This document shows, one piece after another, positions 43,901-64,000 of a DNA stretch of 64,000 nucleotides (the stretch's first letter is position 1; every line of letters begins with the position of its first letter). This DNA comes from Mesorhizobium sp. M3A.F.Ca.ET.080.04.2.1 (GTDB lineage Bacteria; Pseudomonadota; Alphaproteobacteria; Rhizobiales; Rhizobiaceae). The stretch spans positions 2,480,001-2,544,000 of the forward strand of contig NZ_CP034451.1 of NCBI RefSeq assembly GCF_003952525.1, written 5' to 3'. The notes below the pieces were generated by a model. The model saw only the letters and a program-made list of their open reading frames with translations, did not search any database and was not told the origin of the DNA. The position numbers and the translations under genes are program-made.

Positions 43901-44880
43901 ATCGCACGGCGCGCATCATCGGGTTTGGCCATCACGTGCCGGCTCGAAAAGTCGGCAATGCCGAGATCGAGGCAAGCCTCGGGCTGGAGGCAGGCTGGAT
44001 CGAGGGGCGCACCGGCATCCGCACGCGTTTCTGGGCGGAGCCCGGCGACACGTTGTCCGGGCTTGCAGCCAAGGCTGGCGACATGGCGCTTGAGGTGGCC
44101 GGCATCGAGCGCAAGGAGATGGGCCTGCTGCTGCTGGCGACTTCGACACCGGATCATCTCTTACCGCCCAGCGCGCCACTGGTGGCGCACAGGCTCGGCC
44201 TTGAAAGGGCCGGCGGGGGCGACCTCGCCGGCGCCTGCGCGGGGTTCATCTACGCCATGACCTTCGCCGACGGCTTCGTGCGCCTGCACAACAAGCCGGC
44301 CATCGTGATCGCCGCCAACATCTTGAGCCGTCGGATCAATCCGGACGAGCGCGCCAGCGCCGTGCTGTTCGCCGACGCCGCCGGTGCGGTGGTGCTCGCC
44401 CCGTCAGGCGATCCCAGCCACGGCATACTCGGTTCTTCCTTTGCCTCGGATGGGTCCGCTTACGGCCTGATCCACATCCCGGCCGGCGGCAGCAACAGGC
44501 CGTTCGCCGACGAGATCGGCGTCGTCGAAACCCGCATGACCATCGCCAACGGCCGCGACGTCTTCGCCAAGGCGGTGGAGATGATGAGAACTTGCTCGCT
44601 CGAGGCGCTGGCGGCGGCGGGTGTCTCGGTGCCGGACGTCGCCCGCTTCGTGCCGCACCAGGCGAATGCCCGCATCTTCAACGCCGTCGGCAAGTCGCTC
44701 GGTATCGCGGACGAGCGCATGGTCAAGACCATCGCCGACTATGGCAACTCGTCGGCCGCAACGATCCCCCTGTCGCTGTCGGTCGCCCACAGCGCCAACC
44801 CTCTTCGGCCGGGCGAGAAGCTGCTGCTGACGGCGGCCGGCGCGGGGCTTATCGGCGGGGCACTGGTGGTTGGCGCTTAG
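43897..44880 (+). CDS. bioZ: BioZ, FabH-like 3-oxopimeloyl-ACP synthase
   Basis: A 327-residue ketoacyl-ACP synthase III type protein. The catalytic triad is visible: Cys in [12 protein letters not shown], His in [11 protein letters not shown] and Asn in [14 protein letters not shown]. In Rhizobiales BioZ replaces the BioC/BioH route by condensing glutaryl-CoA with malonyl-ACP to start pimelate synthesis. The ATG at 43897 overlaps the bioA stop (ATGA). It ends 13 bases before the convergent dehydrogenase gene. Confidence 0.9.
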
Positions 44881-44893
44881 CTTTGGACTGGAG

Positions 44894-46372
44894 CTAGAGT
44901 CCACCCATACAGAGATACTTCATCTCGAGGTACTCCTCCAAGCCGTGTCGCGAGCCTTCGCGACCGATCCCCGATTGCTTCATGCCGCCAAAGGGAGCGG
45001 CTTCCGATGACATCCGGCCGGTGTTGATGCCGATCATGCCGTATTCGAGCGCCTCGGCCACATGCCAGACGCGTTTGAGATTGGAGGCATAGAAATAGGC
45101 GGCGAGGCCGTATATCGTATCATTGGCCTCGCGCACCACCTGATCGGGGTCCTCGAAACGGATGATCGGCGCGAGCGGCCCGAAGGTCTCTTCCTGGGCG
45201 AGCAGCATTTCACTGGTGATGCCCGTCAGAACCGTCGGCTCGAAAAAAGTGCCGCCGTGACCCGCCCGGCTTCCGCCGCAGCAGATCGCTCCGCCCTTCC
45301 CGATCGCGTCGGCAATATGAGCCTCGATCTTGAGGAGCGCATGGGTGTCGATCAACGGTCCGATGGCGACACCCGGTCTGAAGCCGTCGCCAACCGAGAG
45401 CGAGCGAACCCGTGCGGCAAATTTCTCGGCGAATTCGTCGTGCACGCCCGATTGCACATAGAGCCGATTGGCGGAAACGCAGGTCTGCCCGGCATTGCGA
45501 AACTTTGCCTGGATCGCGCCATCGACGGCAGCATCGACATCGGCATCATCAAAGACGATGAACGGCGCGTTCCCGCCCAGTTCGAGGCTGACTTTCTTAA
45601 CCTGATCCGAGCACTGGCGCATCAGCAGCCGCCCGACTTCAGTCGAGCCCGTGAAGCTGATCTTGCGCACTTTTGGATTGGTGCAGAGTTCGCGCCCGAC
45701 CGCTGCACCTTCCGAGGCATAGATCAAATTCACGACGCCGTCGGGGAAACCCGCCTCCGCCGCCAGCGCGAACATCGCGCCGGCGACGAGCGGGGTCTGC
45801 TCAGCCGGTTTCAGCACGATCGCGCAACCGGCTGCCAGCGCCGGTGAAATCTTGCGGGCCACCATCGAAGCAGGAAAATTCCAGGGCGTAATGGTGCCGA
45901 CGACGCCGATCGGCTGCTTGATCACCAGCATGCGCCGATCCGTCGAAGGAGCAGAAATCGTCTCGCCGTAGATGCGATTGGCTTCTTCCGCATACCACTG
46001 CAAGTAGGCGGCGGCGTGCGAGACTTCCGATACTGCCTCGGGCAGCGGCTTACCCATCTCGGCGGTCAGGATCGCAGCGAGATCATCGGTGTGATCAAGA
46101 ATCAGTTGGTGCCAGCGCCACAATGTGTCGCTGCGGTCCCGGGCGGTGAGAGCTGCCCATCTGGCTTGCGCGACATAGGCCCTGTCGATCGCGGCCTTCG
46201 TTTGCTCGACGCCCATATCGGGAAGCTCGGCAAGCAATTCGCCGGTCGAGGGGTTGAAGACCTTGAACGCGCTCCGATCCCCCTGCTCTCCCCCGGATGC
46301 CATGCGATCCAGTGTCGCGAACAGGCCCGGTTGTTTGAGATGGCGAAGCAGCGAACTCTTTATGCCCGACAC
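44894..46372 (-). CDS. gabD: NAD(P)-dependent succinate-semialdehyde dehydrogenase type aldehyde dehydrogenase
   Basis: A 492-residue aldehyde dehydrogenase. GTVGTITPWNFPASM (Asn of the active site), the general-base Glu in SLELGGNAPFIVFDDAD and the nucleophile Cys in FRNAGQTCVSANRLYVQ are present. The wording (KISPALAAGCAIVLKPAEQTPL, TGRMSSEAAPFGGMKQSGIGREGSRHGLEEYLEMKYLCMG) is closest to GabD, which makes succinate from succinate semialdehyde. The start is a GTG at 46372 with AAGGAG 7 bases upstream. No GABA aminotransferase is adjacent. Confidence 0.85.
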   Translation of the reverse strand: MSGIKSSLLRHLKQPGLFATLDRMASGGEQGDRSAFKVFNPSTGELLAELPDMGVEQTKAAIDRAYVAQARWAALTARDRSDTLWRWHQLILDHTDDLAAILTAEMGKPLPEAVSEVSHAAAYLQWYAEEANRIYGETISAPSTDRRMLVIKQPIGVVGTITPWNFPASMVARKISPALAAGCAIVLKPAEQTPLVAGAMFALAAEAGFPDGVVNLIYASEGAAVGRELCTNPKVRKISFTGSTEVGRLLMRQCSDQVKKVSLELGGNAPFIVFDDADVDAAVDGAIQAKFRNAGQTCVSANRLYVQSGVHDEFAEKFAARVRSLSVGDGFRPGVAIGPLIDTHALLKIEAHIADAIGKGGAICCGGSRAGHGGTFFEPTVLTGITSEMLLAQEETFGPLAPIIRFEDPDQVVREANDTIYGLAAYFYASNLKRVWHVAEALEYGMIGINTGRMSSEAAPFGGMKQSGIGREGSRHGLEEYLEMKYLCMGGL

Positions 46373-46532
46373 GGAAAAGCTCCTTAGGATATCGCTGGAC
46401 GCAACATAGCCGCAGCGCGACACCCGGCATTTATCCCAGCGTCACCATTTTTGTCGAACCTGGCCGGCAGCCGATTGTCGAAACAGGACGCACTTGAGTT
46501 GACAGGGCAGCGTCGCATCGTCCAACCTGCGC

Positions 46533-49538
<3,006 letters not shown>

Positions 49539-49555
<17 letters not shown>

Positions 49556-49736
49556 CGGCCAAACCCATGAAGTCGCGGCCGAAACGCTTGCCGCGCTGCT
49601 CAGCGAACTTGACTTCCAGGGCAGCTGGCTCGCCACGGCGAGGAACGGCGACGTCGTGCCTGCCAGGGAACGCGACCGCTGCCGTCTCAGCGATGGCGAC
49701 CGCATCGAAATCCTCTCGCCGATGAAGGGGGGCTGA
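49539..49736 (+). CDS. thiS: sulfur carrier protein ThiS
   Basis: A 65-residue ubiquitin-like protein ([27 protein letters not shown]...[11 protein letters not shown]) with the C-terminal Gly-Gly that becomes thiocarboxylated. The start is a TTG at 49539 preceded by AAAGGAG at 7 bases; no ATG or GTG fits. It overlaps the end of thiO in another frame and ends 4 bases before thiG. Easily missed because of the TTG start. Confidence 0.9.
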
Positions 49737-49740
49737 TCCA

Positions 49741-50514
49741 ATGCTCGACCTCTATGGACATAAATTCTCGTCCCGCCTTCTGCTTGGCACCGCGCTCTAC
49801 CCCTCGCCTGCCATCATGGCCGAGGCGATCAAGGCGTCCGCCACGGAGATCGTCACCGTGTCGCTCCGCCGCGAAACATCGGGCGGCAAAGCCGGCGGCC
49901 AGTTCTGGTCGCTGGTCCAGTCGCTGGGGGTTCGCGTCCTGCCCAACACCGCCGGCTGCCATTCGGTGAGCGAAGCGGTGACGACGGCGCGAATGGCGCG
50001 CGAGGTGTTCGGCACGGACTGGATCAAGCTCGAGGTGATCGGCAACCACGACACGCTGCAGCCCGACGTCTTCGGGCTGGTCGAAGCAGCCAGGATCCTT
50101 GCCGCGGAAGGTTTCCAGGTCTTTCCCTACACGACCGACGACCTCATCGTGGCCGAGCGCCTGCTCGACGCCGGCTGCCGGCTGTTGATGCCCTGGTGCG
50201 CGCCGATCGGCTCCGCGCGCGGGCCGCAGAACCCCGATGCGCTGCGAAGCCTGCGCGGGCATTTTCCCGGCGTGCCGCTGATCGTCGATGCCGGCATCGG
50301 CCGGCCATCGCACGCCGCAGCCGTGATGGAGCTCGGCTACGACGCGGTGCTGCTCAACACGGCGGTCGCCAAGGCAGGCGATCCCGTCGCCATGGCAGCG
50401 GCCTTCGGCAAGGCGGTCGAGGCCGGCCGCGAGGCCTATTGCGCCGGTTTGCTCGAGCCGCGCGACATGGCCGTCCCCTCGACCCCCGTCATCGGCATGG
50501 CAGCGTTCTCATGA
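49741..50514 (+). CDS. thiG: thiazole synthase
   Basis: A 257-residue (beta/alpha)8 enzyme making the thiazole phosphate from DXP, iminoglycine and ThiS thiocarboxylate. Seen: [13 protein letters not shown], the Schiff-base Lys in [16 protein letters not shown], and [34 protein letters not shown]. It overlaps thiE by ATGA. Confidence 0.95.
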
Positions 50515-51116
50515 GGCTCGATCCGTTTTACCTGATCGTCGATTCCGCCGCCTGGATCGAACGGCTGGTGCCGCTCGGCTTGAAACTGGTGCAACTGCGC
50601 ATCAAGGACCGGGACGAAGCTTCGCTACGCCGCGAGATCCATGCTTCGAAGGCGGTCTGCGACCGTCATGGCTGCCAGTTCATCGTCAACGACTACTGGC
50701 GCCTCGCGATCGAGGAGAATTGCGATTTCGTCCATCTCGGCCAGGAGGATCTGCTCGAAGCCGATTTGAAGGCCATCCGCAGGGCGGGCCTGAGGCTCGG
50801 CCTCAGCACTCACGACGATGCGGAACTCGAGACCGCGCTGCAAGCCGAGCCCGACTATGTCGCGCTTGGCCCGATCTACCCGACCATCCTTAAGGCGATG
50901 AAATGGGCGCCGCAGGGACTGGACCGTATCGCTGTCTGGAAGAGGCGCGTCGGCGGTCTTCCGCTCGTGGCCATCGGCGGGCTCACCGTCGATCGCATTG
51001 CCGGTGTCTTCGCCCAAGGCGCTGAGAGCGCCGCGGTGGTTACCGACATCACCCGCAACGCGCACCCCGAGGCGCGCGCGCTGGAATGGCTGACGGCGAC
51101 GGCGCCATGGCGATGA
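50511..51116 (+). CDS. thiE: thiamine phosphate synthase
   Basis: A 201-residue TIM barrel enzyme coupling HMP-PP and thiazole phosphate. Seen: [51 protein letters not shown] and LVAIGGLT. It starts at 50511 in an ATGA overlap with thiG. Confidence 0.93.
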
Positions 51117-51856
51117 CGCCGCATGTCTTGATTGTCGCCGGCTCCGATTCGAGCGGCGGCGCGGGAATAGCCCGCGATGTCGAGACCGTTTCGGCGTTCG
51201 GGTTGCGCAGCTGCCTCGCCATCACGGCCGTGACCGTCCAGACTCACGCGGCGGTCGAGCGCATCGAGCAGATGCCGCCGGAGCTTGTCGTCGCCCAGAT
51301 GAAGGCCGCCTTTGCCGCCAACCAAGTCGCGGCGGTCAAGATCGGCATGCTGGGCACGGCAGCGGCGATCGAGGCGGTCGGCTCCGTCCTGGCGAGCAAT
51401 CGCCAAGCGTCCGTAGTGCTCGACCCGGTGCTGGCCTCAACGTCGGGCCGGCTGCTGCTGGAGGACGATGCAATCGGCGCATTGCGCCGCGATCTGATGC
51501 CGGTCTGCCGGCTCGTCACGCCCAATTTGCTCGAATTGGCAGAGCTGACCGGATCGGCGCCGGCGCCGGATGAAGAAAGCGCCTCTCTCCAAGGCGAGGA
51601 ACTTTCAAGGACCATAGGAACGGCCGTGCTTGTCAAAGGCGGACACGCGCAGTCGAGCCAATCGGTCGACATCCTGCTGCAGCCGAACTGTCCCGCCGTT
51701 CGGTTCGTAGCGCTCCGCTTGCATTCCGAGATGCGCGGAACAGGCTGCATGCTGTCCAGCGCCATCGCCGCCTCTCTTGCCCTCGGGGCCGACCTGGAAA
51801 AGAGCGTGCGCGGCGCGAAGCAATTTGTCCTGGACGCCCTGGTCCGATCCGCGTGA
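51113..51856 (+). CDS. thiD: hydroxymethylpyrimidine (phosphate) kinase
   Basis: A 247-residue ribokinase-fold enzyme. Seen: VLIVAGSDSSGGAGIARDVETVSAFG, CLAITAVTVQTHAAV, VVLDPVLASTSGRLLL, VTPNLLELAELTG, VLVKGGH and the anion-hole MRGTGCMLSSAIAA (usual DTHGTGC is changed to EMRGTGC). It ends the thi operon. The ATG at 51113 overlaps the thiE stop; 51107 is another in-frame ATG. Confidence 0.92.
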   Translation: MTPHVLIVAGSDSSGGAGIARDVETVSAFGLRSCLAITAVTVQTHAAVERIEQMPPELVVAQMKAAFAANQVAAVKIGMLGTAAAIEAVGSVLASNRQASVVLDPVLASTSGRLLLEDDAIGALRRDLMPVCRLVTPNLLELAELTGSAPAPDEESASLQGEELSRTIGTAVLVKGGHAQSSQSVDILLQPNCPAVRFVALRLHSEMRGTGCMLSSAIAASLALGADLEKSVRGAKQFVLDALVRSA

Positions 51857-52223
51857 TCGGGCCGACAAAGGCGCGGAATTCGGCGAAGACCAAACCGACG
51901 CTGATGAGATCGCGCCTCTCCGCCGGCGGATGCAATTTATGGTTGTCCGGCTTGCTAAGATCTGGGCCGTGCCATGCTCTCCAACAATCAGCCAGATCGT
52001 CCTGCCCGCACTGCGAATGAATCTGACCCGATGTCTCAATTGGTGGTGTGATTGTCGCAAGCATCACAGCGACGGCTCAACGGATATCTACGATGCGCCG
52101 CCGGACGGGGACCCCAGAGTCGCCTAGGGCCAGAGATTTGGCGCGCGGCTTGCACGAGAATATCCCGCACCAGTCGAGCATTCACGGGCACAAACAGGAT
52201 CTCACAGAGAGGACAACTCCCGC
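51857..52223. other. gene-free stretch after thiD
   Basis: About 370 bases with no supported coding frame. It must hold the end of the thi transcript and the promoter for the aminotransferase-dehydrogenase fusion gene. No hairpin with a T-run was seen. Confidence 0.4.
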
Positions 52224-55199
52224 ATGGTGACTATTGCTGAGATGAAGGAACAACTTGCCCGCGAGAACACCATTACTCGCTCAGGTCCGCCAAAGGCGCC
52301 ATCGAATCCCTTCTTCGGCGTAGGCCCCATCACGGACGCGACGATTGACGAGGTCGCTGGAAGACTGCGGCGCGTCGAATTCGATGCCTGGCTGGAGGCC
52401 AACTACCGCAAGCTCGACGACAAGGGCAACGACCTCGGTCCATTCACGACGGCCGAGATCGCGCGCAGCATGCATAGGGGCTATCCCGCCGACAAGATCC
52501 TGACCGACATGATGGGCTCGATCCATCAGTACTTCGAATTCCCCAAACAGAATTTGATGGCCGTCGGTCTCGGTGGCGGGCACAGCGGCTTTACCGTCGC
52601 GGTCATGCACCTGATGAACCCCAACAACGCAAACCAGCGCGTCTACGTGGACACCACGAAACCGGAAGCCTCCGAGTCCCATGGCGCCGGATTCTTCAGG
52701 CAGTCCTGGGCGACCCAGCTTCTCGAACTGCAGAAGTTCGCGCAGAATGGCAGCGCCGACAAAATCCAGTTCGCGACCGTCGAGGGGTCCATCCCCACAG
52801 CAAAGGAACTCGAGGCCCTCGGAACAACGCTGTTCCTCGGCGTCGGACACGAGACGACGGGTGCGAATACCTACAGCAAATCGGAGATCGAGGAGCTTCT
52901 GAAGTGGCTCGATCGCGATCCCGACAACCGGCACGCCGTCCTCGACGCTACATCCATGCTGGGAGCGATGCCGTGGGGCGAGGCTGTCGTGCGCGAAGCT
53001 CTTGCCAAATGCTGCGTCTTCATGCCGTTCCAGAAGGCGATTGGCGGCATCTCCGGATACTTCGTCGTCTCATTCACGCCGCAGGCGTTGAAGCTCGTCG
53101 AGAACAACCAGAACGATCCGGCCTGGGCCATTCCGCGCCAGCTCAAGCTTGCTCCTCCTGTCGACGCGAAGCTTCCGGTCAGCGGCAAGAGATCGCTGAC
53201 GATCGGCCCCTTCTACGATGCGGAACAGCAGCGCATGCTCGGCGGCGTCATCAACACCTACAGCGCGCTCGCCTTCGCCGAAACCACCTTCGGCCTCCTG
53301 CAGGCTGCCCGGCGTGTCGGCTCCGTCAGCGATCTGAACCGTCGCTCGGTCGAGAACCGCCGGGTGATCTCGGAGTGGGTCGACAACAACTCGTTGCTGA
53401 AGTTCACCGTCAGCGAAGCTGAAAAGCGCGGGGCCGCCGTTGTCCTCCTCAAAGTCGTCGATCCCGATATCACCGACAAACAGATCCACGCGCGCATCAT
53501 TGCCCGCTCGAAGCAGCTTCTCGGCTATGAGGGCATCACGCATGCCAACGGCGACCACGAGAAAGGCCTGGACGCTGCCCGGTACGTGAACGCGTTTCCC
53601 GGCATGCCCGGCGACTACCGGGCCTGGATCGGCGGCATCCGCGACCCCGAGGACGTGCGCCTGCTTCTCGACAATCTCGCCTATGCCTACCGCAGGGCCA
53701 AGGTTGCCGTGCTCGAGGAAGAACTGGCGGCGCAGGGCGAGCGGTTCGAGAGCGCGCCTTCGGCCGCCGGCCTGGTCAGGAAGGACGATCCCGAGCGCGC
53801 CTACACGGTCCTGATCGCCGATCTGCTTGGCCTGCGCCTCGGAGAGAACAATGCACCCGACAGCAGCGAGATCGCGGCCTATATTCGGGAAAAAGGCGGC
53901 GAATTCCACCTTGGCGCCCTGCAGGACCGGAACGCCCTGCAAAAAGGCAAGATCCACTTCTTCTATCAGCCAGGGCTGAGCACCGAAGCTGAGCTTCTGG
54001 GCTGCACGGCCCAAGGCGAATACGATGCCCTGATCGCGGCAGCCACCTTCATTCCCAAGCAGTCCGTCTTCCCGCTCGGGGGCGTGCGGATTGGCGCCGG
54101 GACCGGCAACATGGGTTCCAACTCGTGGGGCGGCCCTGACGGCGACGGTGGCGTAGCGCCGCTGATGAACACGCCCGGCATCAACAGCCGCGCGACAGCC
54201 CAGATGGCCATGAAGGCCCTTCTCAAAGTCGTTCCGAACATCCCCGTCGATGAGTTGCACGAACGGACGGTGGCCGGGAAGTTCGACACCGGGCGCGACC
54301 TGAAGGATTTCCCGACCTCCAAGCTCGAAGGCCAGAAACTGGCCGTCCTGGGCTATGGCAACATCGGCCGGGAAGTCGCCAAGCTGGCATCGGCGTTCGG
54401 CATGCACGTTTGCGTCTATGCCAGGGAAGCCCATCGCGCCTGGATCGAGGCCGAGGGTTTTGAATATGCCGACAGTCCGGTCAAGGCAGCGAAAGACGCC
54501 AACGTGCTTTCGGTTCACGTCGGCCTCGGCCGCCTCGACAAGTCGACCGGCAAGTTCAGCAATGCAGGTTTCGTGAACCGCGACGTGCTCTCGAGCCTGG
54601 CCGATGGGGCGGTGCTGATCAACTACGATCGCGGCGAGCTCGTCGACATCGAGGCTCTCGATGCCGCCCTGCAGTCGGGTAAGGTCAGCCATGTGGCGGT
54701 CGATGCCGACATCTTCAGCGACGCGAAGGACGGAACGCTGCGAGGGCCGCTCACGCCCTACCTGCCCTTGAGCGAGCGGCATCCAGGCCGGCTGGAGCTT
54801 CTTCCGCACGTGGCGGCCGACACCGATCACCCGACGCGTGTTGCCGGCGCCAAGCAGGCCGTCGATCAGATTTACGACGCGATCCAGTTCAAGGCCGTGC
54901 GGAATCTGAAGGGCGCCTTGCCGGAGGGATATGTCAACCTGGGCTCGACCGTTCCCGTCGGTGTCGGCAAGTCGACCTCGGCCAATCTCGGCGCCCTTGC
55001 GGATCAAGCCGAACAGTGGAAGGCGCTACGTCAGCTCTCCGAGCGGATCGCGGCTGTCATCGGCGGCATCGACGCGACCACGGACCCGGAAAGGCGCGCA
55101 ACCTTGGTCGGTCGATATCACAGCGAGCTGGCGCTCGACCTGCTCAACCACCGGCGCATCCTCGAGGAAGCAGGTCTGTTTGCTCCAGCGGTCGCTTGA
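52224..55199 (+). CDS. SerC-like aminotransferase fused to SerA-like D-2-hydroxyacid dehydrogenase
   Basis: A 991-residue two-domain protein. Residues 1-500 are a class V PLP aminotransferase of the SerC type: NPFFGVGPITDATI, VGLGGGHSGFTVAVMHLMNP, Asp241 in AVLDATSM and the PLP Lys271 in FMPFQKAIGG. Residues about 530-960 are a D-2-hydroxyacid dehydrogenase: GCTAQGEYDALIAAATFIPKQSVFPLGGVRIGAGTGN, LMNTPGINSRATAQMAMKALL, Rossmann LAVLGYGNIGREVAKL (about 706-721), catalytic Arg in INYDRGELVDIEAL and His in LLPHVAADT. The usual Glu of the DVFxxEP stretch is not obvious (DADIFSDAKDG). It stands alone between thi and sugar transport genes. The pair of reactions recalls serine synthesis; the true substrate is unknown. 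Confidence 0.85.
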   Translation: MVTIAEMKEQLARENTITRSGPPKAPSNPFFGVGPITDATIDEVAGRLRRVEFDAWLEANYRKLDDKGNDLGPFTTAEIARSMHRGYPADKILTDMMGSIHQYFEFPKQNLMAVGLGGGHSGFTVAVMHLMNPNNANQRVYVDTTKPEASESHGAGFFRQSWATQLLELQKFAQNGSADKIQFATVEGSIPTAKELEALGTTLFLGVGHETTGANTYSKSEIEELLKWLDRDPDNRHAVLDATSMLGAMPWGEAVVREALAKCCVFMPFQKAIGGISGYFVVSFTPQALKLVENNQNDPAWAIPRQLKLAPPVDAKLPVSGKRSLTIGPFYDAEQQRMLGGVINTYSALAFAETTFGLLQAARRVGSVSDLNRRSVENRRVISEWVDNNSLLKFTVSEAEKRGAAVVLLKVVDPDITDKQIHARIIARSKQLLGYEGITHANGDHEKGLDAARYVNAFPGMPGDYRAWIGGIRDPEDVRLLLDNLAYAYRRAKVAVLEEELAAQGERFESAPSAAGLVRKDDPERAYTVLIADLLGLRLGENNAPDSSEIAAYIREKGGEFHLGALQDRNALQKGKIHFFYQPGLSTEAELLGCTAQGEYDALIAAATFIPKQSVFPLGGVRIGAGTGNMGSNSWGGPDGDGGVAPLMNTPGINSRATAQMAMKALLKVVPNIPVDELHERTVAGKFDTGRDLKDFPTSKLEGQKLAVLGYGNIGREVAKLASAFGMHVCVYAREAHRAWIEAEGFEYADSPVKAAKDANVLSVHVGLGRLDKSTGKFSNAGFVNRDVLSSLADGAVLINYDRGELVDIEALDAALQSGKVSHVAVDADIFSDAKDGTLRGPLTPYLPLSERHPGRLELLPHVAADTDHPTRVAGAKQAVDQIYDAIQFKAVRNLKGALPEGYVNLGSTVPVGVGKSTSANLGALADQAEQWKALRQLSERIAAVIGGIDATTDPERRATLVGRYHSELALDLLNHRRILEEAGLFAPAVA

Positions 55200-55223
55200 A
55201 AACCGACCAGCCATAAAGGATTT

Positions 55224-55261
55224 GCGGGGTGGCGGGTTCAAACCTGCCGCCCCGCCACCGC
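55224..55261 (+). terminator. GC-rich stem-loop after the fusion gene
   Basis: GCGG-gg-TGGCGGG pairs with CCCGCCACCGC across a 14-base loop, 24 bases after the stop codon. It could end transcription, but there is no T-run behind it, so this is a weak call. Confidence 0.35.
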
Positions 55262-55540
55262 GTCCAACCCAATCTTACCCGTGCAAACCTCCGCGTTCTG
55301 CTGACAGCGCTCGCGACCTACGCGCGGTCCCCATTTGCGCCACGCGTCCAGTTCTATTCGCTTAGACCCTGGCCACACGACCGTCATAGGGTCATCCTCT
55401 CCCCGCTCCTGTCATCACGCTGGTAGGCCTGCAAGGGCATCCAAGTCGACGGACGATGCCGCTCCGTCTTTCGTTCTCTTTCCACGTGGCCAAGTCCTGA
55501 TCGCAGCTTTCGCGCTGTGACATCGAAGCCCCTTGCCTAA

Positions 55541-55565
55541 TTGGTATGCTGGTATAATGTGTACC
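55541..55565. promoter_or_regulatory. ATACCAG element 1, overlapping an extended -10 promoter
   Basis: On the minus strand it reads TTATACCAGCATACCAA; on the plus strand the same bases contain TGGTATAAT (55550-55558), an extended -10 box. Related copies occur at 60283-60300, 61181-61196 and 61218-61231. It is about 65 bases before the binding-protein start. A GntR- or LacI-type regulator encoded outside the window is the likely binder. Confidence 0.55.
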
Positions 55566-55626
55566 TGACATGGCGTCATCATCAGCAGCGACGCTGTGCA
55601 TCGCGATCTTTCTGGGAGGAGATACA

Positions 55627-56649
55627 ATGAAGGGTTCAATCTTGGCGGCGCTGGCCGGCGCCGTGCTGGCAAGTGCTGCGACTTTGCCGGCTCAGGCGTC
55701 TGCGGACGCTCCGGTCATCGCGCTCGCCAACGCCTATTACGGCAACACCTGGCGCCACCAGATGGTGGAAGCGTTCGAAGCCTCGGCCAAGGAGGCCAAG
55801 GCCGCGGGGCAGATCGCGGACTACATCGTCATGAACGGCGACGGTTCGGTCGCGCAGCAGAACAGCCAGATCGCCGAACTGATCCTGAAGAAGGTCGATG
55901 TGCTCGCCGTCGACGCCGCTTCCGAGACCGCCGTCAACGGCATCATCGAGAAGGCCTGCAAGGCCGGCATCATCGTCATCTCATTCGACTCGGTCGCCTC
56001 GGCGCCCTGCAACTACCAGCTCAATTTCGACTTCAAGGGTTACAAGGCAGCCCAGGCCGAAGCCGTCTTCAAGATGCTCGGCGGCAAGGGCAACGTCATC
56101 CAGGTGCGCGGCGTGAAGGGCTCGGCGCCCGACAACGACATGTTCAACGCGCAGCAATCGGTGCTGGCTAAATATCCGGACATCAAGGTGGTGGCGACCG
56201 TCTACGGCCAGGCGACGGCCTCGGTGGCGCAGGCGGCCATCGCCAACGTGCTGCCCTCGCTGCCGCATGTCGATGCCGTGCTCGGCCAGGGCGGCAGCGA
56301 CGATGTCGGCATCGCGCAGGCCTTCGTCCAGTATGGCGGCGACTATGCCGGCAAGATGCCGATCATCGAAGGCGGCGGCGGCACCGACTTCGTCAAATGG
56401 TGGGCCGACGAGAATGCCAAGAACGGCTACCAGACGGTGTCGATGAACACCACGCCCGGAATCGGCGGCGCCGCCTTCTGGCTCGGCCTGTCATTGCTGA
56501 AGGGCGCCAAGGCGCCGAAGCTGATGATCATGCCGGTGGCAACCGTCGACGCCAGCAACCTCAAGGAGTATGCCAAGCTGCCGGGCGGCCAGATCATCAG
56601 CCCGAGCTATTCGCTGGACTGGGTCAAGCAGAACCTGCTCAGCAAGTAG
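55627..56649 (+). CDS. sugar ABC transporter substrate-binding protein (ribose/xylose type)
   Basis: A 340-residue periplasmic protein with signal peptide MKGSILAALAGAVLASAATLPAQASA and the type I periplasmic-binding fold: PVIALANAYYGNTWRHQMVEAFEASAKEAKAAG, ILKKVDVLAVDAASETAVNGIIEKACKAGIIVISFDSVA. GGGAGGAGA precedes the ATG at 55627. The ligand is unknown; the co-located oxidoreductase suggests a branched or unusual sugar or sugar acid. It starts an operon with the fused ATPase-permease and a second permease. Confidence 0.87.
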   Translation: MKGSILAALAGAVLASAATLPAQASADAPVIALANAYYGNTWRHQMVEAFEASAKEAKAAGQIADYIVMNGDGSVAQQNSQIAELILKKVDVLAVDAASETAVNGIIEKACKAGIIVISFDSVASAPCNYQLNFDFKGYKAAQAEAVFKMLGGKGNVIQVRGVKGSAPDNDMFNAQQSVLAKYPDIKVVATVYGQATASVAQAAIANVLPSLPHVDAVLGQGGSDDVGIAQAFVQYGGDYAGKMPIIEGGGGTDFVKWWADENAKNGYQTVSMNTTPGIGGAAFWLGLSLLKGAKAPKLMIMPVATVDASNLKEYAKLPGGQIISPSYSLDWVKQNLLSK

Positions 56650-56722
56650 GACGGCTAGCCGGCTCAGATCGGGCGCCGAGCAAAAATTGCGCGCCCGATC
56701 TTGCCAACAATACGGAGGACGA

Positions 56723-59206
56723 ATGTCCCAGCTTGCCGTTGCCGATCAGGACAGCGCCGCGGCCGCCGCACCTGGCGCTGCTGCCCGGCCAAGCGTCGTT
56801 GCGCTCAGCGGGATCACCAAGAGTTTCGGACCGACGCTCGCCAATGCGGGAATAGAGCTCTCGGTCGGCGCAGGCGAGGTGATCGGGCTGGTCGGCGGCA
56901 ACGGCGCCGGCAAATCGACGCTGATGCGCATTTTGTGCGGGGCGATGTGGCCGACGCTCGGCGTGATTTCATTTGCCGGCGAGGAGGTTCCCTTTTCTGC
57001 CTATGATACCGGCGAAGCGCAGCGGCGCGGCATCCGCATGGTGCACCAGGAGCTGTCGCTCTGCGCCAATCTTTCCGTCGCCGAGAACTTCTTCCTGGAA
57101 ACGCCAGGCGACGCGGCGAGCCGGCCGGGCTGGCGCACGCTCTATCGCACCCGCGCCCGCGCGGCGCTGGACGCCGTCTTCCCGGGCAACGGCATCGATG
57201 CCGACGCGGAGGTCGGACACCTCACCATCGCCGAACGGCAGATGGTGGAGATCGCGCGCGCCGCGGCGACGCCCGGGGTCAAACTGATCGTGCTCGACGA
57301 GCCGACATCCTCGCTCGATCTCGACCGCTCAAAACAACTGCGGGCTTTCATCCGCGAACGGGCAAAGGGCGGGCTCGCCTTCATCTTTATCAGCCACAAG
57401 CTGCAGGAGATCATCGACATCGCCACCGAGGTGGTGGTGCTGCGCAACGGCCGCACCGCATGGCAGGGCCATGCCGCGGACGCCTCGATCGGCAGGCTCG
57501 TGCAATTGATGGGTGGAGACACCAACCCGGTTCACCAGCACATGGTGTCCGTCACCTCCTCCCAGGACGTGCTGGTGCGGCTCTCCGGGCCGCTGACGGC
57601 CGATCTCGGCCACGACGTCGACATCGTGCGCGGCGAGATCGTCGGGTTGGCCGGGCTCGAAGGCAGCGGGCAGAAGGAGCTGCTGCACGCGATCTTCAAC
57701 CCCGGGCGCACGCGACACGCGGCCATTGCCAGGCACGCGGACGCGGGCTTCATTGCCGGCGACCGGCAGAAGGAAGGCGTGTTTCTGCTGTGGAGCGTGC
57801 TCGCAAACATCGGCATCGGTGCCATTGCCCGCCGCCCGGCACTCAGCGTTGTCTCCGACCGTGCCAACCGCGACACCGCTTCGAAGGCCGCCGGCCGCCT
57901 GCGGCTCGACGATGGGCGCTTCCGTTCCAACATCAGCGAGCTCAGCGGCGGCAACCAGCAGAAGGCGCTGGTGGCGCGGGCGCTGGTTGCCGACACGCCG
58001 ATCATCCTGCTCGACGATCCGACGCGCGGCGTCGACATAGCCACCAAGCAGGATTTCTACCGGCTCTGCAACGAGGTCGCGCGCAGCGGCCGGGCGCTGG
58101 TCTGGCACACGACAGAGGACGCCGAGTTGCTGGCCTGCGACCGCGTGCTGGTCTTTTCTAGCGGTCGGATCGTCAAAGAGTTGGCAGGCGACGGCATCAC
58201 CGAGCAGGCAATCGTCGGTGCCTCCTTCACGCACTCGACGGACAGGCAGGCGAGCAAAGCGCCAAACCAAACCGCCATGACCGCATTCGGCCGCAGGCTG
58301 GTCAACGCCGCGCCCTTCATCGGGCTTGCCGCCGTGCTTGCCATCATGATCGCGATCAACCCCGCCGTCGCCTCTTCCTTCGGCCTCGACCTGCTCTTGA
58401 TGCCGGCATTGTCTCTGGTGCTAGTGACGGCAGCACAGATGTTCATCGTCGGCGGCAGCGAGATCGATCTCGGCGCCGGCGCTTTTGCCGGCCTGGTCAG
58501 CGTGCTCAGCGCCACGCTGCTCTACGACCAGCCATGGCTCGGGGCGCTGGCGCTGGCGGCGGCCGTTGCCGCCTATGCCGGGCTCGGCGGCCTGATCCAA
58601 GCGCGCAAGATCCCCGCCATCGTGGTGACGCTCGGCGCGTCCTTCATCTGGGTCGGCATAGGCTATGCGCTGCAGCCGACACCGGGCGGCGCCAGTCCGG
58701 AGTGGCTGTCGGCGCCCTTCAACTGGTCGCTCGGCGCCGTGCCGACCTCGATCATCCTGATCGCGGCCGTAGCGCTGATCGTGCTGGTCATCGACCGGCT
58801 GCCGCTCGGCGTGGTGCTGCGCGGCTTCGGCAACAACCCGGCAGCGATGATGCGCTCGGGCTGGTCGCCGACCCGCTACGCGCTGGTGCGCTATCTCATT
58901 GCCGGGCTGTTCGCCGGGGCCGCCGGCCTATCACTGACGGCCATCAACACGGCAAGCGACATCAATTCCGGCAATTCCTACACCCTGCTCAGCGTTGCCG
59001 CCGTCGTGATGGGCGGCTGCTCGCTTCTCGGCGGCATCATTTCGCCGGTCGGCGCCGTCGCCGGCGCGGTGACACTGTCATTGATCGGCGCGCTGCTCGG
59101 CACGCTCAGCGTCAGCAGCGACTACAACGCCGCGACGCAAGGCTTGATACTGATCGCACTCCTGACGCTGCGCAGCCTGACCGCCGACCGCAGGAGCGAG
59201 CCATGA
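56723..59206 (+). CDS. fused sugar ABC transporter: two ATPase domains plus permease domain
   Basis: An 827-residue protein. Residues 1-510 are an RbsA/XylG-type double ATPase: first half with GGNGAGKST, signature-like LTIAERQMVEIARA and VLDEPTSSLD; second half without a good Walker A (AGLEGSGQKE) but with LSGGNQQKALVARAL and LLDDPTRGVD, as is usual for this class. Residues about 530-827 are an RbsC-type permease with about eight helices (FIVGGSEIDLGAGAFAGL, SYTLLSVAAVVMGGCSLLGG). ATPase and permease are normally separate proteins. GGAGG precedes the ATG at 56723; the next permease overlaps by ATGA. Confidence 0.88.
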   Translation: MSQLAVADQDSAAAAAPGAAARPSVVALSGITKSFGPTLANAGIELSVGAGEVIGLVGGNGAGKSTLMRILCGAMWPTLGVISFAGEEVPFSAYDTGEAQRRGIRMVHQELSLCANLSVAENFFLETPGDAASRPGWRTLYRTRARAALDAVFPGNGIDADAEVGHLTIAERQMVEIARAAATPGVKLIVLDEPTSSLDLDRSKQLRAFIRERAKGGLAFIFISHKLQEIIDIATEVVVLRNGRTAWQGHAADASIGRLVQLMGGDTNPVHQHMVSVTSSQDVLVRLSGPLTADLGHDVDIVRGEIVGLAGLEGSGQKELLHAIFNPGRTRHAAIARHADAGFIAGDRQKEGVFLLWSVLANIGIGAIARRPALSVVSDRANRDTASKAAGRLRLDDGRFRSNISELSGGNQQKALVARALVADTPIILLDDPTRGVDIATKQDFYRLCNEVARSGRALVWHTTEDAELLACDRVLVFSSGRIVKELAGDGITEQAIVGASFTHSTDRQASKAPNQTAMTAFGRRLVNAAPFIGLAAVLAIMIAINPAVASSFGLDLLLMPALSLVLVTAAQMFIVGGSEIDLGAGAFAGLVSVLSATLLYDQPWLGALALAAAVAAYAGLGGLIQARKIPAIVVTLGASFIWVGIGYALQPTPGGASPEWLSAPFNWSLGAVPTSIILIAAVALIVLVIDRLPLGVVLRGFGNNPAAMMRSGWSPTRYALVRYLIAGLFAGAAGLSLTAINTASDINSGNSYTLLSVAAVVMGGCSLLGGIISPVGAVAGAVTLSLIGALLGTLSVSSDYNAATQGLILIALLTLRSLTADRRSEP

Positions 59207-60252
59207 ACGCACTCGCCGGCTTCGGCATCTGGGCGCAGCGTAACCGCTGGATTTGGTCGGCGGTCGGCGTGCTGCTGTTGTGGCTCGTGCTCTCCGTCGT
59301 CACCAACCGCTTCAGCCTGTCCAGCCTGTCCGGCGTGATGCTCTCGGCATCGTTCCTCACGGTGGTCGGCATCGGTCAGATGTTCGTGGTGACGACCGGA
59401 CGCGGCAATATCGACCTGTCCGTCGCTTCGGTGATCACGCTCAGCGCCTTCGTCGCGCTGCTCACCGTCAAGGGCCAGGACGCAAATCTCGCCATCGGCG
59501 TCGCCGCCGCCATCCTGCTCGGCCTTGCGGTGGGCGCTCTCAACTCGCTGCTTGTCGTCGGGCTCGGCATCCCGGCGATCATCGCGACATTAGCGACCGG
59601 CTACGTGCTGGCAACGGCGACGCTGCTCTCGAACAAGGCGATACCGGGTTTTGCCGTCAGCCCGGCGCTGAAGGCCGTTGCGACGGGACGCATTTCCGGC
59701 GTGCCGATCATGGCCATCGTCGCCGTTTTCGGCGTGGTCGCGGCCTCCTTCGTGCTGCGCTACACGGTGTTCGGCCAGCTCCTGTCGGCGGTCGGCCAGA
59801 ACCGCGCCGCGGCACGGCTCGCGGGGATCCGCAACGGCCGGGTGATTGCCTCGGCCTTCGTCATCTCTTCGGTGCTGGCGTCGCTCGACGGGCTGCTGCT
59901 CGGCGCGTATATCGGCGGCGCCTTCCTCGAAATGGGCCAACCATACCTGTTGCAGTCGATCGCTGCCGTGGTGCTTGGCGGTACGCTGATCTTCGGCGGC
60001 TCCGCGACGGCGCTCGGCACGCTCTTTGCCAGCATCCTACTCGTCTTGATCGTCACCACCATGCAGATCGTCGGCCTGCCTCCCGGCGCCCAGGACATCG
60101 TGCAGGGCATCGTCGTCATCTTCGTGCTGGCGCTGGCCGGCCGCCAGGCGCTGGCGCGGCGCGCTTCTGTCGATCCTGCCGATGGCGGAGCGGATCCGGC
60201 AATCACGGCGGAAGTAACCGCGCCGAGTCTGGTCGAAAAGGTGCAGCCTTGA
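59203..60252 (+). CDS. sugar ABC transporter permease (RbsC type)
   Basis: A 349-residue polytopic protein: LTVVGIGQMFVVTTGRGNIDLSVASVITLSAFVALL, VGLGIPAIIATLATGYVLATATLL, VGQNRAAARLAGIRNGRVIASAFVISSVLASLDGLLLGAYIGGAFLEMGQPYLLQSIAAVVLGGTLIFGG. It overlaps the fused ATPase-permease by ATGA. With the permease part of that protein it would form a heterodimeric channel. Confidence 0.9.
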   Translation: MNALAGFGIWAQRNRWIWSAVGVLLLWLVLSVVTNRFSLSSLSGVMLSASFLTVVGIGQMFVVTTGRGNIDLSVASVITLSAFVALLTVKGQDANLAIGVAAAILLGLAVGALNSLLVVGLGIPAIIATLATGYVLATATLLSNKAIPGFAVSPALKAVATGRISGVPIMAIVAVFGVVAASFVLRYTVFGQLLSAVGQNRAAARLAGIRNGRVIASAFVISSVLASLDGLLLGAYIGGAFLEMGQPYLLQSIAAVVLGGTLIFGGSATALGTLFASILLVLIVTTMQIVGLPPGAQDIVQGIVVIFVLALAGRQALARRASVDPADGGADPAITAEVTAPSLVEKVQP

Positions 60253-60282
60253 CGATTCCGCTTGCCAAGTCGTGGTAGAGTG

Positions 60283-60300
60283 ATCATACCAGTGTACAAG
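60283..60300. promoter_or_regulatory. ATACCAG element 2, upstream of the oxidoreductase
   Basis: ATCATACCAGTGTACAAG. A possible -35 box TTGCCA (60262-60267) lies 17 bases before CATACC, so the element sits over the -10 region. 48 bases to the start codon at 60348. Similar to elements 1, 3 and 4. Confidence 0.55.
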
Positions 60301-60347
60301 TTGACGATCGACCGTCCATCGTCAGAATATTCAGGGAGCAAGGTTAG

Positions 60348-61175
60348 ATGACAACGATCGCGCTGTTCGGAGCCGGCGGCAAAATGGGCTACCGCCTGTC
60401 GACCAATTTCCGCGGTTCGCCTTATTCGATCCGCCATGTCGAGATCAGCGAGGCGGGCCAGGAGCGGCTGAAGACCGGCCTCGGCATCGACACGGTGAGC
60501 GTCGACGACGCGCTCAAGGGCGCTGAGGTGGTGATCCTGGCCGTCCCCGACACGCATATCGGCAAGGTCGCGACCGGCATCGAGAGCAAGCTTGCCCCTG
60601 GAACGATGGTGATCGTGCTCGATGCGGCCGCTCCCTTTGCCGGCCACTTGCCCAAGCGCCCCGACCTGACCTACTTCGTCACCCATCCCTGCCATCCGCC
60701 GATCTTCAACGACGAGACCGACATGGCGGCGAAGAAGGACTTCTTCGGCGGCGTCAAGGCTAAGCAGCATTTCGTCAGCGCGCTGATGCAGGGGCCGGAA
60801 GAGGACTACGCCAAGGGCGAGAAGATCGCTCAGATCATCTGGGCGCCGGTGATGCGCTCGCATCGCGTCACCGTCGAGCATATGGCTCTGTTGGAACCCG
60901 GGCTGTCGGAGACGGTCTGCGCGTCGCTGCTCGTCGTCATGAAGGAAGCGCTCGACGAGGTGGTCGCGCGCGGCGTCGACCGACAGGCGGCGCTCGACTT
61001 CCTGCTCGGCCACATGAACGTGCTCGGCGCCGTCATTTTCGGCGAAACCCAGGGCGTGTTTTCGGATGCCTGCAACAAGGCGATCGAGTTCGGCAAGCCG
61101 GTGCTGATGCGTGACGATTGGAAGCGCGTGTTCGAGCCGGAGGAGATCGCCGCCAGCATCCAGCGCATTACCTGA
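60348..61175 (+). CDS. NAD-dependent oxidoreductase resembling D-apionate oxidoisomerase (ApnO)
   Basis: A 275-residue protein with an N-terminal Rossmann domain (MTTIALFGAGGKMGYRLSTNFRGS, GxGxxG variant) and an all-helical C-terminal domain as in 6-phosphogluconate/beta-hydroxyacid dehydrogenases. Notable blocks: VVILAVPDTHIGKVATGI, VIVLDAAAPFAGHLPKRPDLTYFVTHPCHPPIFNDETD and RSHRVTVEHMALLEPGLSETVCASLL. This resembles, from memory, ApnO, which oxidises and isomerises D-apionate; other 3-hydroxyacid or sugar-acid oxidation is possible. It lies between two sugar ABC operons and has its own ATACCAG element. Confidence 0.6.
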   Translation: MTTIALFGAGGKMGYRLSTNFRGSPYSIRHVEISEAGQERLKTGLGIDTVSVDDALKGAEVVILAVPDTHIGKVATGIESKLAPGTMVIVLDAAAPFAGHLPKRPDLTYFVTHPCHPPIFNDETDMAAKKDFFGGVKAKQHFVSALMQGPEEDYAKGEKIAQIIWAPVMRSHRVTVEHMALLEPGLSETVCASLLVVMKEALDEVVARGVDRQAALDFLLGHMNVLGAVIFGETQGVFSDACNKAIEFGKPVLMRDDWKRVFEPEEIAASIQRIT

Positions 61176-61180
61176 TTCAC

Positions 61181-61196
61181 TTATACCAGATACATA
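61181..61196. promoter_or_regulatory. ATACCAG element 3
   Basis: TTATACCAGATACATA, starting five bases after the oxidoreductase stop and about 235 before the next binding-protein gene. Shares TTATACCAG exactly with element 1. Confidence 0.5.
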
Positions 61197-61217
61197 TCAT
61201 CTGAATTTGTGGTTGAC

Positions 61218-61231
61218 TCATCATACCAGTT
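61218..61231. promoter_or_regulatory. ATACCAG element 4, next to a -35-like box
   Basis: TCATCATACCAGTT follows TTGACT (61213-61218), a good -35 match, so the site would overlap the core promoter of the second sugar ABC operon. It shares TCATACCAGT with element 2. Confidence 0.5.
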
Positions 61232-61412
61232 GGCTTTAGCTGTTCGAGCTCGCATAGCTGGGACTCCGGAAACTGCGCGAGCCGAGGAATGGCGGGGAAG
61301 GGGCAGCGAGGCTCGATCGGAGGAAGCCGCCAGAAGGCTTCAATCCGGGCGGCGCTGCCACTACTGCCTGACGAATTCAGACATGGACGATCGCCTCGGG
61401 ACCCGAGGCTGA

Positions 61413-62375
<963 letters not shown>

Positions 62376-62454
62376 GCCGGCGCGATGCAAGTGCGGGGGG
62401 CGAACGCCCGTTCGTCCCTCGCCTCCATTTCTTTTTCGGGTATTCTCGATTGCC

Positions 62455-63116
62455 ATGACCAAGCCGACTTGCGTGCCCAAGAAGAGTTGGCTCATCCTTG
62501 CGCTCACCGCCGCCGTCGGCCTCAGCGCCTGCAAGATCCTGCCGACGCCGTCGGCCCAAGGTGGCGATAGCGCCAACAGCTCGGCCTTCAACCCCGACAG
62601 GATGGTCGCCGAGATCTGGACACCCAAGGTCATTCCCTATCTGCAGCAGAAGGCGGGGCCGTTCGCCGAGGTGCACGCGCTTGCCAAATCCGATCCTGCC
62701 GCAGCCGGCGCCAAGTATGGCAATCCGAAGAAGCAGGCGAATTCGCCATGGACCTTCGCGGTGCGGGTCGAAGGCAAGATCGTCGCCGCCAACACGCAGT
62801 CGCGTGCGGCAACCATCGATGTCGACGTCGATGGCGACGGCAAGGCGGACGCGCGAGTGCAGATCGGGCCGGCGATGCGCGGCACGGCGCTGCGCGACAG
62901 CCTCGACTTCGTGCAATTCAACGACTTCACCAACCAGATCGACTTCGCCCAATTCGGCAAGGCCTTCAACGCCTATGCCGACAAGACGGTGCTGTCCAAG
63001 CTGTCGCGCGATGGACTCGAGGGCCGAACCGCCAAGGTGCTCGGCGCCTATACGATCGAGAGCGGCCAGGAGCTGCCGCTGGTGACACCGGCGGAGGCCG
63101 AGATCGGGCCGAAGCC

Positions 63117-63120
<4 letters not shown>
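62455..63120 (+). CDS. DUF2291 lipoprotein of sugar ABC operon
   Basis: A 221-residue protein with lipoprotein signal MTKPTCVPKKSWLILALTAAVGLSAC (lipobox LSAC, Cys26). The body has FAVRVEGKIVAANTQSRAATIDVDVDGDGKADARVQIGPAMRGTALRDSLDFVQFNDFTNQIDFAQFGKAFN, characteristic of DUF2291, which occurs almost only beside ribose-type ABC transporter genes. Its role is unknown; it may aid capture or gating at the periplasmic side. It overlaps the ATPase start by ATGA. The ribosome binding site is weak. Confidence 0.82.

Positions 63121-64000
<880 letters not shown>

What the first reader, a model, noticed from the sequence alone, without database searches (positions are those of the whole stretch)
52224..55199. 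A 991-residue fusion of a SerC-like aminotransferase and a SerA-like dehydrogenase
Both catalytic halves keep key residues (PLP Lys271, Asp241; Rossmann motif, Arg and His of the dehydrogenase). Phosphoglycerate dehydrogenase and phosphoserine aminotransferase are consecutive steps of serine synthesis but are normally separate and in the order SerA then SerC. Here the aminotransferase comes first, the gene is solitary, and the Glu expected in the DVFxxEP region is not obvious. Either this is a channelling serine enzyme or it makes another 2-amino acid from a 2-hydroxy acid.
Basis: partly seen in the sequence, partly recalled or inferred. Interest (0 to 1): 0.78.

Follow-up and report, generated by a model that had tools for sequence, protein, structure and literature searches.

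The report
Aminotransferase-dehydrogenase fusion with shared tail
A real, widely conserved bacterial protein joins a serine-pathway-like aminotransferase, a dehydrogenase and a helical tail in one chain; the cell keeps its ordinary serine enzymes elsewhere, so this one probably links another amino acid to its hydroxy acid, but its substrate is unknown.

Summary
The 991-codon ORF at 52224-55199 is one intact gene; 119 of the 120 best homologs listed are full length (910-1020 aa), so no stop was missed. The N half has the phosphoserine-aminotransferase fold with its PLP residues invariant. The C half is a D-2-hydroxyacid dehydrogenase with catalytic Arg and His, but the usual Glu is not conserved. 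It is not the cell's serine-synthesis enzyme: a canonical serC-serA pair lies elsewhere, and a separate canonical SerC is present in 22 of 22 fusion genomes tested. Both halves lost part of the phosphate clamp. The coenzyme site reads Ala-Arg instead of Asp, as in NADPH-type reductases. Best reading: a bifunctional enzyme, amino acid to 2-oxo acid to D-2-hydroxy acid (NADPH), substrate unassigned; serine/hydroxypyruvate/glycerate is the leading guess. Known PGDH-PSAT fusions (oomycetes, brown algae) have the opposite order. New variant of a known kind.

The parts
52224..55199 (+). whole CDS, 991 aa plus stop
   Evidence: 119 of the 120 best homologs listed are 910-1020 aa
52224..53738 (+). aminotransferase domain, residues 1-505 (fold match 20-492 to M. 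tuberculosis PSAT)
52473..52478 (+). H84-R85, equivalent to the dimer-mate phosphate pair H110/R111 of AtPSAT1
   Evidence: 65 of 65 rows; role in PSAT from PMC6043687
53034..53036 (+). K271, PLP Schiff-base lysine
   Evidence: 65 of 65 rows; aligned with the Lys of own SerC
53598..53603 (+). P459-G460 where PSAT has the phosphate-binding His-Arg (AtPSAT1 H396/R397)
   Evidence: P 66 of 67, G 66 of 67 rows; no His or Arg among the letters shown for columns 455-465
53619..53621 (+). R466, substrate-carboxylate Arg (AtPSAT1 R403)
   Evidence: 66 of 66 rows
53742..53783 (+). disordered linker, residues 507-520
   Evidence: pLDDT under 50
53784..54938 (+). D-2-hydroxyacid dehydrogenase module, residues 521-905
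54351..54368 (+). nucleotide-binding motif GYGNIG (710-715)
   Evidence: G710, G712 and N713 62 of 62 rows
54420..54425 (+). A733-R734, coenzyme-specificity site; own SerA has Asp there
   Evidence: A 62 of 62, R 61 of 62 rows; SerA alignment
54630..54632 (+). R803, catalytic Arg (NYDRGE)
   Evidence: 62 of 62 rows
54807..54809 (+). H862, catalytic His (LLPH)
   Evidence: 62 of 68 rows with a residue in that column; the other six hold other letters
54939..55196 (+). C-terminal helical tail, residues 906-991, shared with stand-alone AT and stand-alone DH relatives
   Evidence: hhalign fusion vs AT-only prob 99.6, E 1e-24; vs DH-only prob 99.9, E 2e-33; column-shuffled controls 0.6% or less

Best explanation
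A bifunctional enzyme outside the phosphorylated serine pathway. The N-terminal PLP domain (SerC-like fold) moves the amino group of an amino acid to a 2-oxo acid acceptor. The NADP(H)-type D-2-hydroxyacid dehydrogenase module reduces the resulting 2-oxo acid to a D-2-hydroxy acid (or runs the pair backwards). The C-terminal helical tail, shared by most split forms, is probably an assembly module. The substrate is most likely small and not phosphorylated; L-serine / hydroxypyruvate / D-glycerate is my leading but unproven candidate (about 0.3). Shown by computation: domain architecture, conservation, folds, separate SerC/SerA, shared tail. Inferred: activity of both sites, NADPH preference, direction, substrate, role of the tail, any channelling.
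For: Full-length conservation. PLP set H84, R85, W162, T211, D241, Q270, K271, N344, T345, R466 invariant. Fold matches. Canonical serC-serA pair in the same genome and SerC above the cut-off in 22 of 22 fusion genomes. PSAT phosphate pair H396/R397 (PMC6043687, passages) replaced by P459-G460, and the SerA Arg-Ser of RSATKV (human PHGDH active-site loop Arg54-Val59, PMC7097917, one passage) replaced by A605-A606. Ala-Arg in place of the NAD-binding Asp. Shared tail. Some copies sit beside glyoxylate, betaine or carnitine genes: in Sinorhizobium/Ensifer a BhcA-like aspartate-glyoxylate aminotransferase (603.8 bits, under its cut-off of 650), malate-CoA ligase (731.6, over 604) and a betaine-type BCCT (630.3, under 650); these three were named on one locus, L050, and found in five others by similarity.
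Against: No substrate evidence. Half of each phosphate site may remain: H84-R85 are kept, R622 aligns with the Arg of SerA's GRAG and is invariant, and a new invariant R159 lies near W162, so an acidic or phosphorylated substrate is not excluded. The catalytic Glu is missing. Neighbourhoods are mostly unrelated: none of the betaine, glyoxylate or carnitine genes is near the window's copy, and 13 of 44 fusion loci show any of them, 7 of these 13 from Sinorhizobium/Ensifer. Among 22 genomes only one (G038) has a BCCT gene next to the fusion. The dehydrogenase form exists without the aminotransferase. The tail is not universal: 5 of the 22 AT-only rows of A3 are too short to hold it, the fusion copy in G280 stops at about residue 908 in an open frame of 905 codons, and the DH-only copy in G104 has an open frame of only 409. 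Model pTM 0.67: the relative placement of the domains is not reliable.
Confidence: 0.55

Rival explanations
1. It is a channelling serine-synthesis enzyme: D-3-phosphoglycerate to phosphohydroxypyruvate (C half), then to phosphoserine (N half), an extra copy of the SerA/SerC steps.
For: The best NCBIfam models of the two halves are PGDH (74 bits) and phosphoserine transaminase (64 bits), and both halves align with the cell's own SerC and SerA; PGDH-PSAT fusions exist in oomycetes, brown algae and Thecamonas (PMC5715807, PMC2705460, passages); H84-R85 and the R622 alignment remain.
Against: Separate canonical serC/serA and SerC in 22 of 22 fusion genomes; scores far below cut-offs; loss of His-Arg and Arg-Ser; NADP-type site although serine synthesis uses NAD+ (PMC6043687 introduction, passage).
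Confidence: 0.12
2. The two halves act on unrelated substrates; the fusion only co-expresses or co-assembles two enzymes through the shared tail.
For: Each half occurs alone, most with the tail; in the four DH-only genomes of the phylum sample no AT half was found at E 1e-80, three candidates scored in each; label changes on the AT tree at least 4, best count 9; DH-only copies in three genomes of the window's genus sit in a different conserved cluster with an aromatic-amino-acid-lyase-family gene.
Against: The full fusion is kept in many Hyphomicrobiales, in Paracoccus and in 8 of 9 genomes of one further genus, and an aminotransferase and a 2-oxo acid reductase are a natural pair.
Confidence: 0.22
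3. The dehydrogenase half is catalytically dead or a NADP(H) sensor that regulates the aminotransferase.
For: Glu of the catalytic dyad is not conserved; CtBP proteins of this fold, known mainly as co-repressors (recalled), are among the top fold hits.
Against: Arg, the nucleotide motif and Asp, His and Arg residues around the His are conserved; the module also exists alone, which does not fit a pure regulator of the aminotransferase.
Confidence: 0.08
4. It makes 4-phosphohydroxythreonine for vitamin B6 from 4-phosphoerythronate (PdxB plus SerC activities).
For: PdxB is a SerA relative and SerC is the aminotransferase of that pathway (recalled); the C half matches the PdxB model weakly, 51.1 bits.
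Against: PdxB cut-off is 434 bits; the same phosphate-site losses; presence is patchy within the order (25 of 297 genomes with both halves in one frame), unlike a vitamin pathway.
Confidence: 0.03

Closest known systems
PGDH-PSAT fusion proteins of oomycetes, brown algae and Thecamonas (PMC5715807, PMC2705460)
   Same: a dehydrogenase of the SerA family and an aminotransferase of the SerC kind (TIGR01365 in stramenopiles) in one chain
   Different: there PGDH is N-terminal and PSAT C-terminal, and they serve the phosphorylated serine pathway, in mitochondria for oomycetes and brown algae; here the order is reversed, both halves are remote from the canonical families, a third tail module follows, and canonical SerC/SerA exist beside it
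SerC, phosphoserine aminotransferase type 2 (TIGR01365)
   Same: fold and PLP residues; 25% identity to own SerC over 370 columns
   Different: 56.9 bits against a cut-off of 448.2; one phosphate-binding His-Arg pair lost
SerA / glyoxylate-hydroxypyruvate reductases (D-2-hydroxyacid dehydrogenases)
   Different: 75.7 bits against 454 for PGDH, 47.6 against 492 for GhrB; no conserved Glu; no ACT domain found by Pfam
stand-alone aminotransferase (about 500-640 aa) and dehydrogenase (about 480 aa) proteins of the same family
   Same: 50-64% identical to the matching half in the rows of A1; most carry the same tail
   Different: one catalytic module only; no assigned function that I could find

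Membership tests
SerC (phosphoserine aminotransferase) | score over the curated family cut-off | tested here: not met
   TIGR01365 56.9 of 448.2 bits; NF002841 64 of 477; Aminotran_5 not matched
SerC (phosphoserine aminotransferase) | fold and PLP-binding residues | tested here: met
SerC (phosphoserine aminotransferase) | both phosphate-binding His-Arg pairs of PSAT | tested here: not met
   H84-R85 kept, the H396/R397 pair replaced by P459-G460
SerA (phosphoglycerate dehydrogenase) | score over the curated family cut-off | tested here: not met
   TIGR01327 75.7 of 454 bits
SerA (phosphoglycerate dehydrogenase) | Arg-Glu-His catalytic set | tested here: not met
   Arg and His kept, Glu column not conserved
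SerA (phosphoglycerate dehydrogenase) | Asp for NAD(H) after the second strand | tested here: not met
   A733-R734
PGDH-PSAT fusion of stramenopiles | PGDH first, PSAT second | tested here: not met
   AT first, DH second; order of the known fusions from passages of PMC5715807 and PMC2705460
NADPH-dependent glyoxylate/hydroxypyruvate reductase (GhrB/GRHPR) | score over the curated family cut-off | tested here: not met
   NF011938 47.6 of 492 bits; NF009714 63.5 of 455
NADPH-dependent glyoxylate/hydroxypyruvate reductase (GhrB/GRHPR) | NADPH-dependent reduction of hydroxypyruvate | not testable with these tools
   only the sequence signature Ala-Arg was seen
PdxB | score over the curated family cut-off | tested here: not met
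   NF001309 51.1 of 434 bits

The most novel reading that the evidence does not exclude
A three-module enzyme family, undescribed as far as my searches show, in which an ~80-residue helical tail is a common assembly domain. The same aminotransferase and NADPH reductase occur fused (AT-DH-tail) or apart (AT-tail, DH-tail), and the fused form passes hydroxypyruvate directly from serine transamination to reduction, giving D-glycerate from the glycine/serine made during betaine or carnitine breakdown.
Probability: 0.17. Interest if true: 0.65.

Novelty: new variant of a known kind. Interest (0 to 1): 0.43.

Why it matters
Sources label these proteins 'NAD(P)-dependent oxidoreductase', 'phosphoglycerate dehydrogenase' or 'phosphoserine aminotransferase'; the last two would mislead if this reading holds. 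A bifunctional aminotransferase-reductase with a shared tail module would be a natural test case for channelling and for how split and fused enzymes are held together, and it would add an unrecognised route between amino acids and hydroxy acids in rhizobia and other alphaproteobacteria.

Tried and rejected
Missed stop or frameshift: rejected, full length in the homologs. Riboswitch upstream of the gene: none; in 44000-64000 the only match above Rfam's threshold is a TPP riboswitch ahead of the thiC-like gene. Conserved operon: looked for in 44 fusion loci (some are near-duplicates, for example several R. leguminosarum plasmids), 8 loci of one further genus (output partly cut), S. chiapasense and annotated plasmids (one search had no annotation); none found. 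The betaine/glyoxylate association is a lead chosen after the fact, not a test. BCCT background: 24 matched stretches in 11 of 22 genomes, one beside the fusion. Finding stand-alone AT genes in sequenced genomes: the matches all lie in long frames (996-1044 codons), that is fusions. Solved-structure search with the AT half: nothing meaningful; with the tail: best E 0.82. Promoter/terminator scan: nothing above chance, nothing at the gene ends. Papers: six searches found none on this bacterial fusion (one search used guessed locus tags); some searches were for residues and context. Papers seen only as passages: PMC6043687, PMC12478193, PMC5715807, PMC2705460, PMC7097917, PMC7478625; PMC5732821 gave no passage for my terms. 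The role of human PHGDH Arg54 in phosphate binding, the NADPH signature of GhrB and the SerC/PdxB roles in vitamin B6 synthesis are recalled.

Side notes on method: gene calls of neighbourhoods are my own (longest or GC3-biased frames), not curated. The script stopped with an error after 5 of 11 DH-only loci, so the other 6 were not read there. The output was swollen by my mistake (all fetched proteins used as queries) and was redone. The tree has 19 open forks and a very long outgroup branch; its label changes are counts, not a dated history, and one row counted as fusion (P0355) is a 547-aa protein with 61 AT residues. In one search the six non-His letters in column 862 probably come from AT-only tails placed there by the aligner (such placement is seen). 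In one search the AT-only rows of 560 aa or less (5 of 22) were left out.
Full report
What is there. The frame 52224-55199 (+) encodes 991 residues without a stop. The window lies in a complete 6.17 Mb genome; the nearest stored protein is 99% identical and labelled Mesorhizobium sp., so I take the organism to be a Mesorhizobium. Of 699 homologs at E 1e-3 or better (only the 7994 candidates sharing most words were scored), 120 were listed and 119 of these are 910-1020 aa long. In a sample of 297 genomes of the order, 25 carry both halves in one frame and one more (G037) has them as two pieces at the starts of two contigs; no AT-only match appears in the listed rows, with two candidates scored per genome. 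In a class sample 3 of 385 and in a phylum sample 8 of 398 genomes had any match at E 1e-60, the latter all in the window's own family and four of the eight DH-only. In one further genus, probably Kiloniella (one of its contigs has the length given for the contig of the Kiloniella laminariae protein P0118), 8 of 9 genomes carry it; the ninth is 77% complete.

A third module. Stand-alone relatives of each half exist: AT-only proteins of about 500-640 aa and DH-only proteins of about 480 aa. Most keep an ~80-residue helical tail after the AT or DH domain. Profile comparison gives fusion against AT-only prob 99.6 (E 1e-24), fusion against DH-only 99.9 (E 2e-33), AT-only against DH-only 98.9 (E 2e-17); column-shuffled controls, five per pair, reach 0.6% at most (42, 17 and 19 sequences; the 5 of 22 AT-only rows of 560 aa or less were left out). 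So the usual architectures are AT-DH-tail, AT-tail and DH-tail, and in the fusion the dehydrogenase lies between the aminotransferase and the tail. It is not universal: besides those five short rows, the G280 fusion ends at about residue 908 and the G104 DH-only frame has 409 codons. On an AT tree of 67 rows the fusion label needs 9 changes, at least 4 forced by well-supported branches: the dehydrogenase was gained or lost repeatedly. The tail resembles no solved chain by sequence.

Active sites. In the aminotransferase H84, R85, W162, T211, D241, Q270, K271, N344, T345 and R466 are invariant (65 or 66 rows). In AtPSAT1 the phosphoserine carboxylate is bound by R403 and W171 and the phosphate by H396, R397 and, from the dimer mate, H110 and R111 (PMC6043687, passages). 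The fusion keeps the equivalents of R403, W171, H110 and R111 but has P459-G460 for H396-R397. A new invariant Arg (R159) lies three residues before W162. In the dehydrogenase R803 is invariant and H862 is present in 62 of 68 rows; the Glu column is not conserved, although D827 and D829 are invariant. The SerA loop RSATKV, which lines the human PHGDH active site (Arg54-Val59, PMC7097917, one passage), reads AAATFI; the Arg after it (R622) is kept. The residue after the second strand, Asp in own SerA, is A733 followed by R734 (62 of 62 and 61 of 62 rows). This resembles NADPH reductases; the comparison with GhrB is recalled, and the printed alignment of glyoxylate reductase 3wnv also lacks the Asp, while PGDH 1wwk has it.

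Not the serine pathway. The genome has serC (739.7 bits to TIGR01365) and serA (669.1 bits to TIGR01327) next to each other at 4.199-4.202 Mb, while the fusion scores 56.9 and 75.7 bits against cut-offs of 448.2 and 454. In all 22 fusion genomes tested, a separate SerC is over the cut-off. With the altered phosphate sites and coenzyme site this argues against the phosphorylated serine pathway, though not absolutely, because part of each phosphate site may persist.

Surroundings. In the window the gene is alone between a thiamine operon (thiC-like to thiD-like, names by eye; TPP riboswitch at 46531-46642) and a sugar-type ABC transporter. Across 44 fusion loci no neighbour is general. A minority is suggestive, 13 of 44. 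Six Sinorhizobium/Ensifer loci (L044-L048, L050) have a BhcA-like aminotransferase, malate-CoA ligase and a BCCT upstream, four of the six also GlxA-type regulators, and a seventh (L055) has the BCCT and regulators only. R. indicum (L110) and Mesorhizobium G136 (L077) have the same betaine-type ABC and hydroxyproline-epimerase cluster upstream, and L052 has the epimerase. G038 has a BCCT gene about 345 bp away. Paracoccus aminovorans has a DAO-GcvT oxidoreductase 400 bp upstream. A carnitine-dehydrogenase-like gene (name by eye; 3HCDH plus thioesterase-like domains) is near the fusion in 4 of 8 loci of the further genus, one of which, L096, is among the 44. The window's copy and most others have none of these, S. 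chiapasense has sugar-kinase-like genes instead, and the BCCT background in 22 genomes gives only one neighbour. I treat this as a lead towards glycine/serine/glyoxylate metabolism, no more. DH-only genes in three genomes of the window's genus sit in another conserved cluster with an aromatic-amino-acid-lyase-family gene (Pfam run on one of the three), and in the four DH-only genomes of the phylum sample no AT half was found at E 1e-80, so the halves can also serve apart.

Known relatives. PGDH-PSAT fusions are published for oomycetes, brown algae and Thecamonas with PGDH first (PMC5715807 and PMC2705460, passages). The bacterial protein has the reverse order, divergent halves and the tail, so it looks like a separate invention. 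My six paper searches found no description of it; most subscription papers and all supplements were out of reach.

Verdict. The serine-channelling reading is not supported. The best reading is an aminotransferase coupled to an NADPH-type 2-oxo acid reductase with an unassigned, probably non-phosphorylated substrate. It is a new variant built from known enzyme kinds, of moderate interest until a substrate is found.

Noticed in passing
46531-46642 and 46713-51856: TPP riboswitch (73.1 bits, gathering 54.3) ahead of a thiamine operon, thiC-like to thiD-like (gene names by eye), upstream of the fusion
   Followed up: partly
56720-59206: One 828-aa (or longer) chain holds two ABC_tran stretches and a BPD_transp_2 permease domain: an RbsA-RbsC-type fusion, followed by a second permease gene
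   Followed up: partly
60348-61175: 275-aa protein with PGDH_C (PF16896, 239 bits) beside the sugar-type ABC genes; no NCBIfam model at E 1e-10
   Followed up: partly
L099, L100, L104: Stand-alone DH gene in three genomes of the window's genus next to an aromatic-amino-acid-lyase-family gene (Pfam on L100 only), an alcohol-dehydrogenase-like, an aminotransferase-III-like and an aldehyde-dehydrogenase-like gene (names by eye)
   Followed up: partly
L065:6001-7749: Ensifer adhaerens plasmid copy annotated as a 582-aa hypothetical protein that ends inside the dehydrogenase module (match to residues 2-583 of P0001)
   Followed up: no
L041/L106 (G243:C30): Dehydrogenase-half copy with one TAG and one TAA in the matched stretch, near a transposase-like frame (by eye)
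   Followed up: no
G113 (C79 and C399): Two copies of the full fusion in one genome
   Followed up: no
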